Shown piece by piece: positions 1,305 through 7,913 of a stretch of 10,492 bases of DNA. The notes under the pieces are model-generated. The model ran no database searches. It saw only the letters and a list, made by a program, of their open reading frames with translations, and was not told where the DNA came from. A program made the translations under genes and the position numbers. The stretch covers positions 1 to 10,492 of the forward strand of contig JAPYWL010000045.1 of NCBI GenBank assembly GCA_028276365.1, given 5' to 3'. Each line of letters begins with the position of its first letter. Position 1 is the first letter of the stretch. The DNA comes from Deltaproteobacteria bacterium (GTDB taxonomy: Bacteria; DRYD01).

Positions 1305-2840
1305 ATGAAGAAATTACCAATAGGGATAAGTGATTTTAAAGAATTAATAGAAGGTAATTATATCTATGTGGATAAAACTGAGTACATATACAAGTTAATA
1401 AACCAAGGAAAATACTATTTTTTAAGCAGACCTAGACGTTTTGGTAAATCACTATTACTTTCTACTATTAGATATCTCTTTAAAGGTCATAAAGATTTAT
1501 TTAAAAACTTATTTATAGAAGATAAATGGAATTGGAATGAAACCTATCCCACTATAAGAATTAGCTTTGCTATAGACTTACTTAAAAAATATGATTATAA
1601 AAAAAGAATAATTCAAGAATTACTAAAAAACTATATTAATAATGAATTAGAAACTTTTGAAAATCCAGAAGATGAAGTAGAACTTTTTGAAAATCTTATA
1701 ATAAACATTTATAGAAAATACAAAAAGCAATTAGTTATACTAATAGATGAATACGATAAACCAATTTTAGACTTAATAGAAGATATCAAACAAGCTGAAG
1801 AAGTTAGAAAATATTTAAAAGCCTTTTATTCTGTCTTAAAAAATCTAGATGAATATATTAAATTTATCTTAATAACAGGAGTTAGTAAATTCTCTAAAGT
1901 ATCTTTATTTAGTGGTTTAAATCAATTAGAAGATATATCATTAAATAAAGAGTTTGGTAATATATGCGGTTATACTCAAAATGAATTAGAATCCTATTTT
2001 AAAGATTATCTAAAAGACCTAAATTTAGATCAAATTAAAGATTGGTATAATGGCTATAATTTCTTACAAGATACTCTTTATAACCCTTTTGATATTCTTT
2101 TATATTTAAGAAATAGAGAGTTTGATAGCTATTGGTATAAAACTGGAACTCCCAGTTTTTTAATAAAACTAATTAAAGATAAAAAATATGATGTAACTCA
2201 ATTAGAAAATAAAATCGTCAAGAAAAACATCTTAGAAAAATTTGACATAGAAGAAATAAATATAGAAGCTTTAATGTTTCAAACTGGTTATTTAACTATT
2301 AAAGAAGTTTATCAAAAGGAATATGGTCAAGAATATAAACTCGGCTTCCCTAATAAAGAAGTTAGAATCTCCTTTAATGAAAATATCTTAGAATTTACCA
2401 TAAAAGAAGAAGTAAGATATAAATTAGTAGATGAAATAATATCAACTTTAAAAAAGGAAGATATCTCTAAACTTAAAGAACATATAGACCTATTAATAAA
2501 TAACATTAGCTATATGTACCTTAAAGAAGAAGCAAGTTATGTATTAGCTGTTTTTGTTTTGTTTTATTCTACTGGGCTAAATGTTATTACTGAAGATAAT
2601 ACTTCTAAAGGCAGAATCGATTTAACCATTATTGTTAATAATTCTATTGTTTATATTATTGAATTTAAAGTTATTGAAAATGCTCAAGATAAGGGAAAAG
2701 CCTTAAATCAAATTATACAAAAACAATATTATCAAAAATATCTTAACTATGATAAAATCTATATCATCGGTATAGAATTTGATAAAAATAAAAAACAAAT
2801 TTCTAATTTTGAATACCAACAAATTAAAAAGGCTGAATAA
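1305..2840 (+). CDS. AAA-ATPase-like / PD-(D/E)XK nuclease family protein
   Basis: This 511-residue protein has the two-part layout of a large bacterial family that joins an AAA-ATPase-like domain to a C-terminal PD-(D/E)XK nuclease-like domain (Pfam AAA-ATPase_like plus PDDEXK_9). The N-terminal signature PIGISDFKELIEGNYIYVDK is present. Residues 41-53 (SRPRRFGKSLLLS, K48) are the family's P-loop. Residues 143-153 (LVILIDEYDKP, D148/E149) are Walker B, and 187-205 (FILITGVSKFSKVSLFSGL) is the sensor-like strand. Near the C-terminus GRID (D439), IEFK (E453, K455) and the Q469 helix give the nuclease core, all intact. A ribosome site, AAGGTG, ends 8 bases before the ATG. The family is often multicopy in anaerobes; its biological role is not established, with defence, toxin or selfish-element roles all possible. 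No transposase or toxin partner is seen, apart from the divergent unknown gene. Confidence 0.9.
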   Translation: MKKLPIGISDFKELIEGNYIYVDKTEYIYKLINQGKYYFLSRPRRFGKSLLLSTIRYLFKGHKDLFKNLFIEDKWNWNETYPTIRISFAIDLLKKYDYKKRIIQELLKNYINNELETFENPEDEVELFENLIINIYRKYKKQLVILIDEYDKPILDLIEDIKQAEEVRKYLKAFYSVLKNLDEYIKFILITGVSKFSKVSLFSGLNQLEDISLNKEFGNICGYTQNELESYFKDYLKDLNLDQIKDWYNGYNFLQDTLYNPFDILLYLRNREFDSYWYKTGTPSFLIKLIKDKKYDVTQLENKIVKKNILEKFDIEEINIEALMFQTGYLTIKEVYQKEYGQEYKLGFPNKEVRISFNENILEFTIKEEVRYKLVDEIISTLKKEDISKLKEHIDLLINNISYMYLKEEASYVLAVFVLFYSTGLNVITEDNTSKGRIDLTIIVNNSIVYIIEFKVIENAQDKGKALNQIIQKQYYQKYLNYDKIYIIGIEFDKNKKQISNFEYQQIKKAE

Positions 2841-2886: not shown

Positions 2887-3843
2887 TCAGGGTAAAGGAT
2901 AATCAGCTACTTTTTTATTATTCAAAAATACACTAACTTTAGCATCCCCTATATAAAAAATCCTTAGATTAGAAAAAGATTGACCTGAATAATAGTTATC
3001 TAAAATTAATCGCTTACCCAAAAAATCATCTAAATAAACCTTAATATTACTAATATCTTTACTATACTTAAACTTTAAAACTAAATTAACCATTTTAATA
3101 TTAGGAATTTGAGAATAATTTAAATTAGACTCAATAATAACAGTATCATTATATACATAAGAATTAACAATTTTTCTGTCCTCAATTACATCATTATTTT
3201 TAAATTCTATAAACAAGCTATCAACTTTATCTAAATCTTGCCAAGCTTCTGGTAAATAAGTTTTTAAATTATTTATTAAATCTTCAGATTTTAAATTCTT
3301 AGAAATAAGAAAAGATATTTTTTGATTATTAAATATAGGAGAATCAGGTTCAGGAGATTGCAATAAAATTGTACCATCCTTTATACTAATAGAAGGATAA
3401 TATAAATAATTATAAATCAAACTAAATTGATTAAATTTTAAATTAGGATTAATTTTAATATCACTAACATTGTATCCTACCAAATCAGGTAATAAAAAGG
3501 ACTTAGAGGAATTCCCCCCACTGCTGATAACCACTTTAATAACCCTTCCTTTTTTAACTTTCATTCCATAAGGAGGATCTTGATTTAAAATCATATTTTT
3601 AGGTTTATCAGAAATCGTAGTAGAAACCACTTCAACATCTAGACCAATTAATTTTAAATTACTCTTAGCATCATAAATATCATAACCAACAATATTAGGA
3701 ACAACAATATCACCTTCAGCATCAGGACCATAAAAAAACCTATAAACAAAATAACCTCCAACTAAAATTACTAATAAAAAAATAATCCCCACTAAAACAT
3801 TTATAACATTTAGCTGCCCCTTTTTATTATATATCCTAAACAT
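2887..3843 (-). CDS. Membrane-anchored PASTA-domain protein without a kinase
   Basis: This 318-residue protein has a short basic N-terminus, one membrane helix at about residues 13-36 and an outward C-terminal part. Residues about 46-108 form a clear PASTA domain (VVPNIVGYDIYDAKSNLKLIG, then LNQDPPYGMKVKKG and a VIKVVIS strand). Residues about 117-182 form a second, divergent one (LPDLVGYNVSD, then QSPEPDSPI). Residues 205-318 are a beta-rich tail I do not recognise. PASTA domains bind peptidoglycan stem peptides or act as spacers in Ser/Thr kinases and penicillin-binding proteins. No kinase or transpeptidase domain is present here, so a cell-wall sensor or structural role is inferred. It lies 34 bases after infC with no Shine-Dalgarno; the leader is an AATTTAAATTTAAATT tract. 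Cotranscription with infC is likely. Confidence 0.82.
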   Translation of the reverse strand: MFRIYNKKGQLNVINVLVGIIFLLVILVGGYFVYRFFYGPDAEGDIVVPNIVGYDIYDAKSNLKLIGLDVEVVSTTISDKPKNMILNQDPPYGMKVKKGRVIKVVISSGGNSSKSFLLPDLVGYNVSDIKINPNLKFNQFSLIYNYLYYPSISIKDGTILLQSPEPDSPIFNNQKISFLISKNLKSEDLINNLKTYLPEAWQDLDKVDSLFIEFKNNDVIEDRKIVNSYVYNDTVIIESNLNYSQIPNIKMVNLVLKFKYSKDISNIKVYLDDFLGKRLILDNYYSGQSFSNLRIFYIGDAKVSVFLNNKKVADYPLP

Positions 3844-3877: not shown

Positions 3878-4378
3878 TTAATTTTTTGGAGAAATAATAA
3901 CATACATGTTCTTATCTTCAATAGTAATATCTTTTTCTATTTTAATATCCTTTAGTTGCTCTAAAATTTCCTGTAAGATAGGTTTAAATTTGTCAGGAGT
4001 AAATTTACTTTTACCCAATAATTGTAAAACAATTTTAACTTTATCACCTTCTTCTAATATCCTTTTTATCATTTGAACCTTAATATTAATCCCACTTTTA
4101 TCTATTTTATTTTTGATAATAACTTCCTTAAGTTCTTGTTTTTTTTGATTTTTTTTAGCAATTTTTTCTTTTTTTATTAATTCATATTTAAATTTTCCGT
4201 AATCTACTATTTTACAAACAGGGGGATTAGCATCAGGAGCAACCTCCACTAAATCTAAATTTTTAGAATCCGCTAATTTTAACGCATCCCTTATATTCAT
4301 CACTCCTAAATTAACATTATTCTCATCTATAACTCTAACTTCCTTAGCTCTTATTTGTTCATTTACTCTATACTTAAT
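3878..4378 (-). CDS. infC: Translation initiation factor IF-3, non-canonical start codon
   Basis: IF-3 binds the 30S subunit, keeps subunits apart and rejects poor start codons and wrong tRNAs. Residues 4-11 (RVNEQIRA) and EVRVID begin the N-domain. Residues 43-66 carry the family signature LDLVEVAPDANPPVCKIVDY followed by GKFKYE. A lysine-rich linker follows, then the C-domain (about 86-166). The first canonical start in frame is GTG at 4303, which would remove 25 conserved residues. The frame stays open upstream to a TGA inside the Shine-Dalgarno, with no ATG, GTG or TTG. The start must therefore be ATT at 4378 (166 residues, given here) or ATA at 4381 (167). AUU starts on infC are known to allow autoregulation by IF-3. 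The usual RGR of the C-domain reads LGK here. rpmI and rplT, its usual partners, do not follow. Confidence 0.93.
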   Translation of the reverse strand: MKYRVNEQIRAKEVRVIDENNVNLGVMNIRDALKLADSKNLDLVEVAPDANPPVCKIVDYGKFKYELIKKEKIAKKNQKKQELKEVIIKNKIDKSGINIKVQMIKRILEEGDKVKIVLQLLGKSKFTPDKFKPILQEILEQLKDIKIEKDITIEDKNMYVIISPKN

Positions 4379-4387
4379 TATATTACT

Positions 4388-4395
4388 TCACCTCC
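4388..4395 (-). promoter_or_regulatory. Strong Shine-Dalgarno of infC that decides the start
   Basis: The minus strand reads GGAGGTGA here, the best ribosome site in the minus-strand block. It lies 6 bases before ATA (4381-4379) and 9 bases before ATT (4378-4376). It is 84 bases from the GTG at 4303, far too distant to serve that codon. Its position supports a non-canonical infC start. Confidence 0.85.
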
Positions 4396-4426
4396 AGTTA
4401 AAATATTTTTTATTATCCATACCTCA

Positions 4427-4470
4427 AGTAAACTACTCCACCTTATAGAAGGTGGAGACTTCTTACAAAG
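4427..4470 (-). mobile_element. Hairpin resembling an IS200/IS605 (TnpB) right end, solo remnant
   Basis: A perfect 9-bp stem (CTCCACCTT/AAGGTGGAG, at 4436-4444 and 4449-4457) closes a 4-base loop. On the minus strand it is preceded by TTTGTAAGAAGT and followed by TAGTTTACTTGAG. This arrangement (GTAAGAAG, G/C-rich hairpin, short AGTT-AC tail) resembles, from memory, the right ends of IS200/IS605-family elements, which also form the 3' end of the TnpB guide RNA. The element body would lie just upstream on the minus strand, but the racemase gene ends only 15 bases away, so at most a solo end remains. No T-run follows on either strand, so it is not a standard terminator. A structured infC leader is the main alternative. 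Confidence 0.45.
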
Positions 4471-4484
4471 GTGTGTTAAAATAC

Positions 4485-5696
4485 TTAAATTAAAAAGAAA
4501 TCTACTTTATTATTACTATTTAAATTAGTTAAATAATTATAAACAGGTAGTAAATTATAAAAGGCTTGTTCTTCCAAATTTAACACATTATCAACTAAAT
4601 AAACCTCTTTTAAATTCCTGTTTCTTATTAAAATTTCAGTTACATCCATAGACATAGCGCCAATAGAATTGGTAATATAATCACCTTTATCATCATAAAC
4701 ATGAAATAATAGCTTTTTAGAAAAAGGAAAAGTAGAATACCCACCATAAACTAACCCTACTAAACTATCTTCCTCAACAACTCCATTAATATATTTATTC
4801 AAATATCCCACGCTTTCACTCTTTAAAACCTCCTTAATCCCAATAACAGGTAATTTAATTTTTATAGAATTTTTAATATTAAATTGATTTTTCAAATTTA
4901 GTAATTCATAATTAGGAGCAATTCCATAAACCAATATCCCCACTCTAACTAAATTACTCAAATTAATAATACTAAAAAACTCTCTTAAATTAAAACCCTT
5001 TAAATCATCTAAATTATTTGAGTCATTTGAATTATTTGAATTATTAAAATACTGAATAAACCTTAAAACCCCCGCACTATTTAATATATGTATATCCCAA
5101 TTCCTACCTCTAAAATTATCTAAAAATTTCTTAAAATTAAGTAATTGATAGTAAATATCATATATATTATCACTTCTCAAATGTGTATAAATTCCTTTCA
5201 CATTAAAGAATTTGAAATCCAAGATTTCCTTTATTTTATCAATTTCAAAGAATTTTATACCAGTCCTATTCATTCCACTATCTATTTCTAATTCTATATC
5301 CAAAACACTCTTTTCTTTTAATAATATTTCCTTCAAAAATAAAAAATATTCATAACTAAAAACAGAAAAATTAATAATATTTTTAAAAGGTAAAGCTTGA
5401 TAAACTAAATTCTCATCAAATTCAGGAAATAATAACAAAACCTTAAAATTATCACTTACTTTTTTATATACCTCATATTCAAAAAATTCTCTTAAATTAT
5501 TTAAGGCAATTCTATTAACAAGATCTTTAATAATATCAAAAATAATATTAAATTGTAATCCATAAGCATTTGATTTTAGGACTACTATCAAATCCTTTTT
5601 AGTTAATTCCCTTATTATTTTGATATTATTCTTAATAATATAGGGATTAAGAATTACAGTAGGATAGCAGATATCTTTTGTTCTACTAATTCGCAT
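4485..5696 (-). CDS. alr: Alanine racemase family protein (fold-type III PLP enzyme)
   Basis: This 403-residue enzyme should interconvert L- and D-alanine (or another amino acid) in the cytoplasm, feeding peptidoglycan synthesis. The barrel motif VVLKSNAYG carries the PLP lysine (K41), although the usual HG after NAYG is LQ here. DSGMNRTG holds the substrate-side arginine R144. NSAG (206-209) and LVRVGILVYGIAP (R251, pyridine-nitrogen contact) follow. ESVGY gives the catalytic tyrosine Y298, and MSMD (348-351) matches the family's cMD motif. Residues 218-229 are an asparagine/serine insertion, which makes the protein slightly longer than usual. The ATG at 5696 is required because conserved YPTVILNPY follows at once. 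The gene overlaps gmhA by 43 bases and lacks a Shine-Dalgarno, so it probably relies on translational coupling. Specificity for lysine instead of alanine is possible but not shown. Confidence 0.87.
   Translation of the reverse strand: MRISRTKDICYPTVILNPYIIKNNIKIIRELTKKDLIVVLKSNAYGLQFNIIFDIIKDLVNRIALNNLREFFEYEVYKKVSDNFKVLLLFPEFDENLVYQALPFKNIINFSVFSYEYFLFLKEILLKEKSVLDIELEIDSGMNRTGIKFFEIDKIKEILDFKFFNVKGIYTHLRSDNIYDIYYQLLNFKKFLDNFRGRNWDIHILNSAGVLRFIQYFNNSNNSNDSNNLDDLKGFNLREFFSIINLSNLVRVGILVYGIAPNYELLNLKNQFNIKNSIKIKLPVIGIKEVLKSESVGYLNKYINGVVEEDSLVGLVYGGYSTFPFSKKLLFHVYDDKGDYITNSIGAMSMDVTEILIRNRNLKEVYLVDNVLNLEEQAFYNLLPVYNYLTNLNSNNKVDFFLI
5010..5045 (-). repeat. In-frame 9-base tandem repeat within the racemase gene
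   Basis: Four 9-base units lie in frame: AATAATTCA twice, then AATGACTCA and AATAATTTA. They encode NNS, NNS, NDS, NNL at residues 218-229. They sit between conserved motifs, probably in a surface loop, so copy-number change would leave the frame and the active site intact. Confidence 0.85.
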
Positions 5697-6254: not shown

Positions 6255-7913
6255 TTAATAATTAACTTTATCTTTAACTTTAGAAATAACTATTTCTTCA
6301 ACAGGATTATAATATTTAAAGTTTTTAATAAAAACCCCTTCAAGGCCTTTACCTTTATCCTTTGGTCTTTTAGTATCAGCAAAAACCCCCTCCTCTATAG
6401 CTTCAAACAATCCCTTATTATAAACATATTCCAACAGTTCATAAGATTTCTTAAGTAAATAATCTGCTCGTTTTTCAATAATTCCATTATTCTTTATTAT
6501 AAACTCAAATCCTAAATCCTTAGCAGCATTAAAAACATATTTCGTTGATTTTATACTTAAATACCTATCTTGAAGCAATGGAGTATGAATTGCTTCGGTT
6601 AATATACCTACTAAGTGTATATGTTGTCCAGTTGAAACAGAAACCAAATTAAACATATTATCAATAACATGGGTATGAAAGATATTACCAGTAACCCACC
6701 TAGTAGGTGGCATATACTTTAAAGGAGAATTAGGAAATAGATGTCTAATCAATAAGGCTTGAGAAAATTCAAATAAAAAAGAATTAGTTATATCAGGTCT
6801 TATTTCATAAGCATGTCCTAACCCTATTAAATAATCTGGCATATAACACTTTTTAGCAAAAGCATAATTAATAAAATGTGAAGTTATAACAGTATAACCT
6901 TTTTCAAACGCATCTGCTGTCGTTAAATAATTATCCTCTCCCGTATTTATTATTATATCACTTAAATTTATTATCAATCTTGAAAAATATTGATCAATAA
7001 AAGTCCTAATAGGATTAATATCTCTAAATAATATTCCATACATACTATCGTTAAGTAGCATATCTAATCTTTCAATAGCAGCAATGGCAGCTATTTCAGG
7101 CATACATAAACCCGAAGAATAATTAACTAACATTAAGTACCTATCAGACATATTCTTATCCAAAGTCTCTCGCATCAATCTAAAATTAGCTTGAGTAGCA
7201 AAAGTACCACCATAACCTTCAGTAGTATATCCTTCAGGTACATAATCTATTAGACTTTGAGCAGAGGACCTAATAACAGCTATACAATCAGCCCCTTGCT
7301 TTACAGCAGATATCGCTTGAATAGCATCCTCAAAGATATTCCCCGTAGCTACTATCACATAAATCCAAGGTAACTTAGGATAACCATACTTTTCTATTAA
7401 TTCTTCTCTTCTTCTCCTTTGATCCTCTATTACTTTAATCCCATTTAAAGCTATCTTATAAGCTATTTCTTTATACCTTTCTAAATTATTAAAAAAATCT
7501 TTTAATTCAGATTCACTAATAATTTTCTTTTCATTAAAATAAATATCATCTAAAAACTCTTTTATCTTATCTAAATTAGATTCCTCAGATCCATTAGAAT
7601 TATACTTAGAATACAAGTAAGCATAAAAATAAGAAGCACCATATTCTATTAAATTAAGTTCTTTTAATTTATCAACTAAAACATTAACATAAGGGACTCC
7701 CTCTTTATTAGCCCCATTTAGTCCCATTATTCTTAATGTAGCTCTTTCTATACTAACAGTAGATCTCTTTTTTATAAACTCAATAACATCATCTACAATT
7801 AAATTCGCTACTTTTAAGGATTTCTCTAATAATGTTTTATCAAAATTTAATGAAGGAAACCTATTTTCTTTTATTAGTTTTATTAACTTATTTTCTTGAC
7901 TAATGTTAGACAT
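6255..7913 (-). CDS. kamD: D-lysine / L-beta-lysine 5,6-aminomutase, alpha subunit
   Basis: KamD with KamE forms the adenosylcobalamin- and PLP-dependent enzyme that moves the terminal amino group of D-lysine or L-beta-lysine to carbon 5 during lysine fermentation. This 552-residue subunit carries the family's barrel core: VATGNIFEDAIQAISAVKQG (188-207), then ADCIAVIRSSAQSLIDYVPE (208-227), then GYTTEGYGGTFATQANFRLM. The PLP contacts I recall from the solved enzyme (R184, S189, S238, Y263, R268, D298) fall on R215, S220, S267, Y292, R297 and D327. The protein is about 35 residues longer than usual, with an extra charged stretch around 100-135. The cobalamin-binding KamE (DxHxxG motif), normally encoded next, is absent; gmhA follows after 13 bases. 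No clear Shine-Dalgarno precedes the ATG at 7913. Confidence 0.93.
   Translation of the reverse strand: MSNISQENKLIKLIKENRFPSLNFDKTLLEKSLKVANLIVDDVIEFIKKRSTVSIERATLRIMGLNGANKEGVPYVNVLVDKLKELNLIEYGASYFYAYLYSKYNSNGSEESNLDKIKEFLDDIYFNEKKIISESELKDFFNNLERYKEIAYKIALNGIKVIEDQRRRREELIEKYGYPKLPWIYVIVATGNIFEDAIQAISAVKQGADCIAVIRSSAQSLIDYVPEGYTTEGYGGTFATQANFRLMRETLDKNMSDRYLMLVNYSSGLCMPEIAAIAAIERLDMLLNDSMYGILFRDINPIRTFIDQYFSRLIINLSDIIINTGEDNYLTTADAFEKGYTVITSHFINYAFAKKCYMPDYLIGLGHAYEIRPDITNSFLFEFSQALLIRHLFPNSPLKYMPPTRWVTGNIFHTHVIDNMFNLVSVSTGQHIHLVGILTEAIHTPLLQDRYLSIKSTKYVFNAAKDLGFEFIIKNNGIIEKRADYLLKKSYELLEYVYNKGLFEAIEEGVFADTKRPKDKGKGLEGVFIKNFKYYNPVEEIVISKVKDKVNY

What the first reader, a model, noticed from the sequence alone, without database searches (positions are those of the whole stretch)
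4376..4395. infC starts at ATA or ATT, set by a strong Shine-Dalgarno
Seen: GGAGGTGA is followed by AGTAAT, then ATA ATT and the conserved IF-3 N-terminus KYRVNEQIRAKEVRVID; no ATG, GTG or TTG occurs in frame before GTG at 4303. Known: in E. coli and several other bacteria infC begins with AUU, and IF-3 represses its own synthesis by rejecting that codon. Inferred: the same autoregulation operates here. An automatic call at 4303 would lose 25 conserved residues. Which of ATA and ATT is used is open: spacing favours ATA (6 bases), precedent favours ATT (9 bases).
Basis: partly seen in the sequence, partly recalled or inferred. Interest (0 to 1): 0.6.

Follow-up and report, generated by a model that had tools for sequence, protein, structure and literature searches.

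The report
IF3 gene starting at an AUA codon
[quoted passage not shown] it is an ordinary new example, except that this lineage's IF3 has an unusually altered C-terminal half.

Summary
On the minus strand GGAGGTGA (4395-4388) is followed by AGTAAT, then ATA (4381-4379) and ATT (4378-4376); the frame encodes full-length IF3 with no ATG/GTG/TTG before GTG 4303. The start is therefore most likely ATA 4381, 6 nt after an SD fully complementary to the relatives' 16S 3' end. This is the general bacterial state: of 89 IF3 loci from other lineages, 38 have no canonical codon in frame and an SD-placed ATH, and 23 more have an SD only before ATH (ATC 21, ATA 20, ATT 20); L20 controls lack a canonical start in 0 of 30. 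AUA is already documented for S. aureus infC. Autoregulation by IF3 is likely but untested here. One new caveat: the IF3 C-terminal domain, which discriminates start codons, scores lowest of the main IF3s sampled and lacks several near-invariant basic residues. The hairpin in the infC leader is IS200/IS605-type debris, absent from relatives' leaders.

The parts
3878..4381 (-). infC, translation initiation factor IF-3 (167 aa), from ATA 4381 to the stop codon at 3880-3878
   Evidence: TIGR00168 158.5 bits; IF3_N and IF3_C; 92% identical to the same-genus orthologue and 68-69% to the sister genus
4379..4381 (-). ATA start codon (best-supported start)
   Evidence: ATA in the same-genus relative, ATC in three sister-genus species, always 6 nt after GGAGGTGA
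4376..4378 (-). ATT, second codon; rejected as the start
   Evidence: aligned codon is CAA in the three sister-genus species
4388..4395 (-). Extended Shine-Dalgarno sequence GGAGGTGA
   Evidence: invariant in five species; complementary to UCACCUCC in the 16S 3' end of two relatives; 0.09 matches expected by chance in the window
4425..4470 (-). Hairpin in the infC leader: left half like the left end, right half like the right end of an IS200/IS605-type element (solo palindromic remnant)
   Evidence: five further copies in the genome; match to left and right ends; TnpB/IS605-linked relatives on plasmids; absent from the relatives' leaders
4485..5696 (-). alanine-racemase-like gene upstream of infC in the same orientation
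   Evidence: Ala_racemase_N; infC start lies 103 nt downstream of its end here, 35 nt in G001, and 19 nt inside it in the sister genus
2887..3843 (-). PASTA-domain protein downstream of infC; occupies the place where rpmI-rplT usually lie
   Evidence: PF03793; the downstream frame encodes similar proteins in the relatives; rplT lies on another contig

Best explanation
infC of this Calescibacterium-related bacterium is translated from AUA at 4381. A strong 8-base SD, 6 nt upstream, places this codon in the ribosomal P site (inferred from sequence; conserved in five species). AUA, like AUC in the sister genus and AUU in E. coli, is a codon that IF3 destabilises in the P site, so IF3 most likely holds down its own synthesis: when free IF3 is scarce, initiation at AUA is tolerated and IF3 is made; when it is plentiful, initiation is rejected. 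The start codon is well supported; the feedback is inferred from E. coli and was not tested here.
For: Aligned starts in four related species: ATA, ATC, ATC, ATC, all 6 nt after GGAGGTGA, with CAA after the ATCs and a stop two codons before them. SD complementary to the relatives' 16S 3' ends. Survey of 89 IF3 loci from other lineages: 38 with no ATG/GTG/TTG in frame and an SD-placed ATH, 23 more with an SD only before ATH, 9 with both but a stronger SD before ATH, 12 with an SD only before ATG/GTG/TTG; L20 control 0 of 30 without a canonical start. Experimental precedents: AUU in E. coli with autocontrol lost on AUU-to-AUG change, ATC in Streptomyces (PMC5472188); AUA in S. aureus infC seen by retapamulin ribosome profiling with an extended SD (PMC13009471). 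IF3 also disfavours over-extended SD sequences (PMC4611024).
Against: No expression, profiling or peptide data exist for this organism. The C-terminal domain of this IF3, sufficient in vitro for rejecting non-canonical codons (PMC4611024), is divergent: E. coli R131 is I/L, R133 is K, H137 is Q/T, R147 is E in all five family members, so the strength of discrimination is uncertain. The infC leader of the window carries a mobile-element hairpin that could alter expression independently.
Confidence: 0.85

Rival explanations
1. Translation starts at ATT 4378, as in E. coli, with ATA as an untranslated spacer codon.
For: ATT is present here and in the same-genus relative; spacing of 9 nt is still permissible.
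Against: The three sister-genus species have CAA at this position and ATC at the ATA position. ATT is not commoner than ATA or ATC in the survey.
Confidence: 0.1
2. Translation starts at GTG 4303 or ATG 4300 and the upstream reading frame is not translated.
For: These are the first codons an automatic caller accepts.
Against: The 26 residues upstream contain the conserved IF3 N-terminus (IF3_N match from residue 6; invariant K3 Y4 R5 N7 I10 A12 V15 R16 V17 I18 D19 E20 in five species). Few amino-acid changes in the N-terminal domain against the same-genus relative (dN/dS 0.05). The strong SD lies at the upstream place.
Confidence: 0.01
3. The AUA start persists as a fixed low-efficiency start or historical relic, without feedback by IF3, because this lineage's IF3 discriminates start codons poorly.
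For: The C-terminal domain has lost several near-invariant basic residues and scores 48-55 bits against IF3_C, below the main IF3 of all other sampled lineages (lowest 66, next 76), while IF3_N scores normally (105-115 bits). Non-canonical starts also lower expression on their own (about 10% of AUG in S. aureus reporters, PMC13009471).
Against: The C-terminal domain is under purifying selection (dN/dS 0.085 between the two genus members), so it is functional in some way. A non-canonical codon has been kept in all five species while its identity changed between ATA and ATC, as expected if the class of codon is selected. Some lineages with normal IF3 also vary at several of these positions.
Confidence: 0.2

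Closest known systems
Escherichia coli infC (AUU start, IF3 autocontrol)
   Same: IF3 gene, non-canonical AUH start, SD-dependent placement; expected feedback by IF3
   Different: codon is AUA; infC is not followed by rpmI-rplT but lies between an alanine-racemase-like gene and a PASTA-protein gene; the IF3 C-terminal domain is divergent; no test of feedback here
Staphylococcus aureus infC (AUA start with extended SD; PMC13009471)
   Same: same codon, AUA, and an extended SD predicted to select it
   Different: S. aureus start was mapped by ribosome profiling; here it rests on comparison only
Streptomyces infC (ATC start; PMC5472188)
   Same: same codon as in the sister genus of the window's organism; annotation often misses it
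   Different: window genus uses ATA

Membership tests
IF-3 (infC) | N-terminal and C-terminal IF3 domains in one protein | tested here: met
   IF3_N 112 bits, IF3_C 53.6 bits, both over cut-off; TIGR00168 158.5 bits
infC genes with a non-canonical AUH start | no ATG/GTG/TTG between the upstream in-frame stop and the conserved N-terminus | tested here: met
   direct reading; same in four relatives
infC genes with a non-canonical AUH start | AUH codon at normal spacing from a strong SD | tested here: met
   GGAGGTGA, 6 nt, ATA; duplex energy -15.2 kcal/mol; anti-SD confirmed in relatives
infC genes with a non-canonical AUH start | the codon class is conserved among relatives | tested here: met
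   ATA, ATA, ATC, ATC, ATC in five species
IF3-autoregulated infC | expression rises when IF3 activity falls and the response needs the non-canonical codon | not testable with these tools
   needs reporter assays
IF3-autoregulated infC | IF3 with residues of the C-terminal domain used in 30S binding and codon discrimination | tested here: inconclusive
   K110, R116, K123, K125 kept; R131, R133, H137, R147 replaced in all five species
infC-rpmI-rplT operon (L20-controlled) | rpmI and rplT directly downstream of infC | tested here: not met
   a PASTA-protein gene follows infC; rplT is on contig C76, infC on C4
IS200/IS605 (leader hairpin) | subterminal palindrome with left-end and right-end flanks | tested here: met
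   left flank GTAAGAAGTCTCC as the left end, right flank GTGGAGTAGTTTACTT as the right end
IS200/IS605 (leader hairpin) | TnpB or TnpA gene in the element | tested here: not met
   no gene in the ~50-nt remnant; no PF07282 hit in the 87%-complete assembly

The most novel reading that the evidence does not exclude
In Calescibacterota the IF3 C-terminal domain has been rebuilt so that start-codon discrimination works differently or weakly, while infC still keeps an AUA/AUC start; the codon would then set a fixed low yield, or be read through a lineage-specific IF3-30S interface.
Probability: 0.12. Interest if true: 0.5.

Novelty: new member of a known kind. Interest (0 to 1): 0.25.

Why it matters
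It adds a deep-branching uncultured phylum to the bacteria whose infC starts at a non-AUG codon, and the small survey suggests that AUC, AUA and AUU are interchangeable across bacteria, so the selected property is the class of codon that IF3 rejects. Automatic annotation cuts 26 residues from the protein. The divergent C-terminal domain offers a natural test of which IF3 residues are needed for codon discrimination.

Tried and rejected
Rfam search of the window and leader: no match, so no known leader RNA such as the L20 leader. Leader hairpin as a conserved infC attenuator or terminator: rejected because relatives lack it and it is a dispersed IS-type repeat. Predicted fold that pairs the SD with the leader's CACCUUUG: not better than shuffles by much (z -1.45, 14 of 200 shuffles as good) and not possible in relatives, so not pursued. 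Short-range structure at the start: none notable. Phylum-wide search gave only seven genomes; two of them (71% and 73% complete) show no IF3 hit, taken as missing data. A structure prediction of IF3 had not finished after six collection attempts and is not used. An exact-pattern scan of viral contigs for the repeat found nothing. My first automatic parse of the L20 control failed for 17 loci and was redone from the match position.

Full report
What is there. On the minus strand, between the stop codon of an alanine-racemase-like gene (ends 4485) and the conserved IF3 N-terminus, the sequence reads ...AACTGGAGGTGAAGTAATATAATTAAGTATAGAGTAAATGAACAAATAAGA.... In the IF3 frame this is TGA (4390-4388) AGT AAT ATA (4381) ATT (4378) AAG TAT AGA GTA AAT GAA. 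The next ATG, GTG or TTG in frame is GTG 4303, and a mechanical ORF list starts there. The extended frame is IF-3 by TIGR00168 (158.5 bits, cut-off 60), IF3_N and IF3_C.

Which codon. The window belongs to a 1.59-Mb, 87%-complete genome in a phylum for which seven genomes are held. Named records of four relatives include Candidatus Calescibacterium sp.; the other titles are unnamed bacteria. The four relatives with IF3 read: same genus, TGGAGGTGA AGG GGT ATA ATT AAG TAT; sister genus, TGGAGGTGA TGA AGT ATC CAA AAA TAC (two species) and TGGAGGTGA TGA AAT ATC CAA AAA TAT. In the sister genus the in-frame TGA leaves only AGT or AAT between the stop and ATC, and the codon aligned with the window's ATT is CAA. 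The one position that carries a plausible initiator in all five is the ATA of the window. The start is therefore most likely ATA 4381, 6 nt after GGAGGTGA. Five species with no ATG, GTG or TTG there also exclude a sequencing error. The 16S 3' end of two relatives reads GGATCACCTCCTTTCT, so all eight SD bases can pair; the window genome's own 16S is not in the assembly.

How general. I read the start region of 89 IF3 loci from other lineages (loci; analysis). In 38 there is no ATG/GTG/TTG in frame before the conserved domain and an ATH codon lies at SD spacing; in 23 more an SD is found only before an ATH codon; in 9 both occur and the ATH has the stronger SD; 1 is tied; 12 have an SD only before ATG/GTG/TTG; 6 have no SD. 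The ATH codons of the first two classes are ATC 21, ATA 20, ATT 20. The classification is automatic and some single calls will be wrong. As a control in the same set of genomes, 30 of 30 rplT (L20) loci have a canonical start in frame and 27 have ATG as the best SD-placed codon. A non-canonical start is thus the common state of infC, and ATA is no rarer than ATT in this sample.

Mechanism. Established elsewhere: IF3 destabilises initiation complexes on codons other than AUG, GUG, UUG; infC starts with AUU in E. coli and ATC in Streptomyces and is autoregulated in E. coli (PMC5472188); S. aureus infC uses AUA with an extended SD (PMC13009471); AUU, AUC and AUA are the triplets IF3 discriminates against, and over-extended SD sequences are discriminated against too (PMC4611024). 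Inferred here: the same negative feedback.

The C-terminal domain of IF3 can by itself reject non-canonical codons in vitro (PMC4611024). In this family it is divergent. Against Pfam IF3_C the five members score 48-55 bits; the main IF3 of every other sampled lineage scores at least 66 (that one is split in two pieces; the next lowest is 76), and only a second copy in one genome scores 50. IF3_N is ordinary (105-115 bits) and L20 is low but within range (130-136 bits). Using E. coli numbering, R131 (R/K in 28 of 29 other lineages) is I or L, R133 (R in 29 of 29) is K, H137 (H in 21, Y/F in 6) is Q or T, R147 (mostly R/K) is E, and Q33 (28 of 29) is N. Those 29 were the ones with the best IF3_N scores, so they are not a random sample, and the E. 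coli sequence was supplied from memory; the alignment to the solved E. coli chain agrees in this region. The domain is under purifying selection (dN/dS 0.085 between genus members). The 16S 790 loop of relatives is canonical, GGATTAGATACCC. Whether discrimination is weaker or merely achieved with other residues cannot be said from sequence.

The leader. The window has 103 nt between the upstream gene and ATA, against 35 nt in the same-genus relative; in the sister genus the upstream gene runs 19 nt past the ATC, so translation may be coupled there. The extra DNA in the window contains the hairpin CTCCACCTT-CTAT-AAGGTGGAG (4457-4436). It recurs in the genome, mostly as the 3' end of a ~180-nt dispersed element with four near-complete copies and none found in the other six genomes of the phylum. 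The element resembles the 3' part of TnpB/IS605 OrfB genes on Borrelia plasmids (72-74% over 100 nt), and the hairpin sits at the 3' end of an IS891/IS1136/IS1341 transposase gene of Thermovirga. In alignment the window hairpin has a left-end flank on one side and a right-end flank on the other. It is therefore best read as a solo IS200/IS605-type remnant, not a conserved infC regulator. Rfam has no match.

Verdict. The divergent IF3 C-terminal domain is the only point that a specialist might find unexpected.

Noticed in passing
window 4425-4470 (-); L114, L115, L116, L117: A ~180-nt dispersed element, four near-complete copies and several fragments in this genome and none found in six other genomes of the phylum, with a sigma-70-like promoter (TTGACA-17-TATAGT in L116) and a strong fold (z -2.7). 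It resembles the 3' end/omega-RNA region of TnpB genes but no TnpB domain was found in the assembly: possibly a non-autonomous IS605-type element carrying a stand-alone guide RNA.
   Followed up: partly
L168 2190-2545 (Rhodothermus phage RM378, 25.39-25.74 kb): Unannotated gap with an IS605-type left end, a truncated TnpB-like N-terminus (MFRAYKYRIYPNKKQKEPLEKTFGCVGFYWNRALEIK) and a right end 93% identical over 42 nt to the Calescibacterota element.
   Followed up: partly
window 3881-4135 (-): IF3 C-terminal domain lacks several near-invariant basic residues in all five family members.
   Followed up: partly
L002, L004, L005 around 1485-1504 (oriented): In the sister genus the alanine-racemase-like gene overlaps the infC start by 19 nt, so the SD and the ATC start lie inside it; translational coupling is likely there but lost in the window's genus.
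   Followed up: partly
window 1305-2840 (+); L117 1156-1999: AAA-ATPase_like/PDDEXK_9 protein (PF09820, PF08011) with a close paralogue next to one copy of the dispersed element on another contig.
   Followed up: no
window 6255-7913 (-): Lysine 5,6-aminomutase alpha subunit (NF052384, 687 bits) upstream of gmhA-like and racemase-like genes in what looks like one transcription unit with infC.
   Followed up: no
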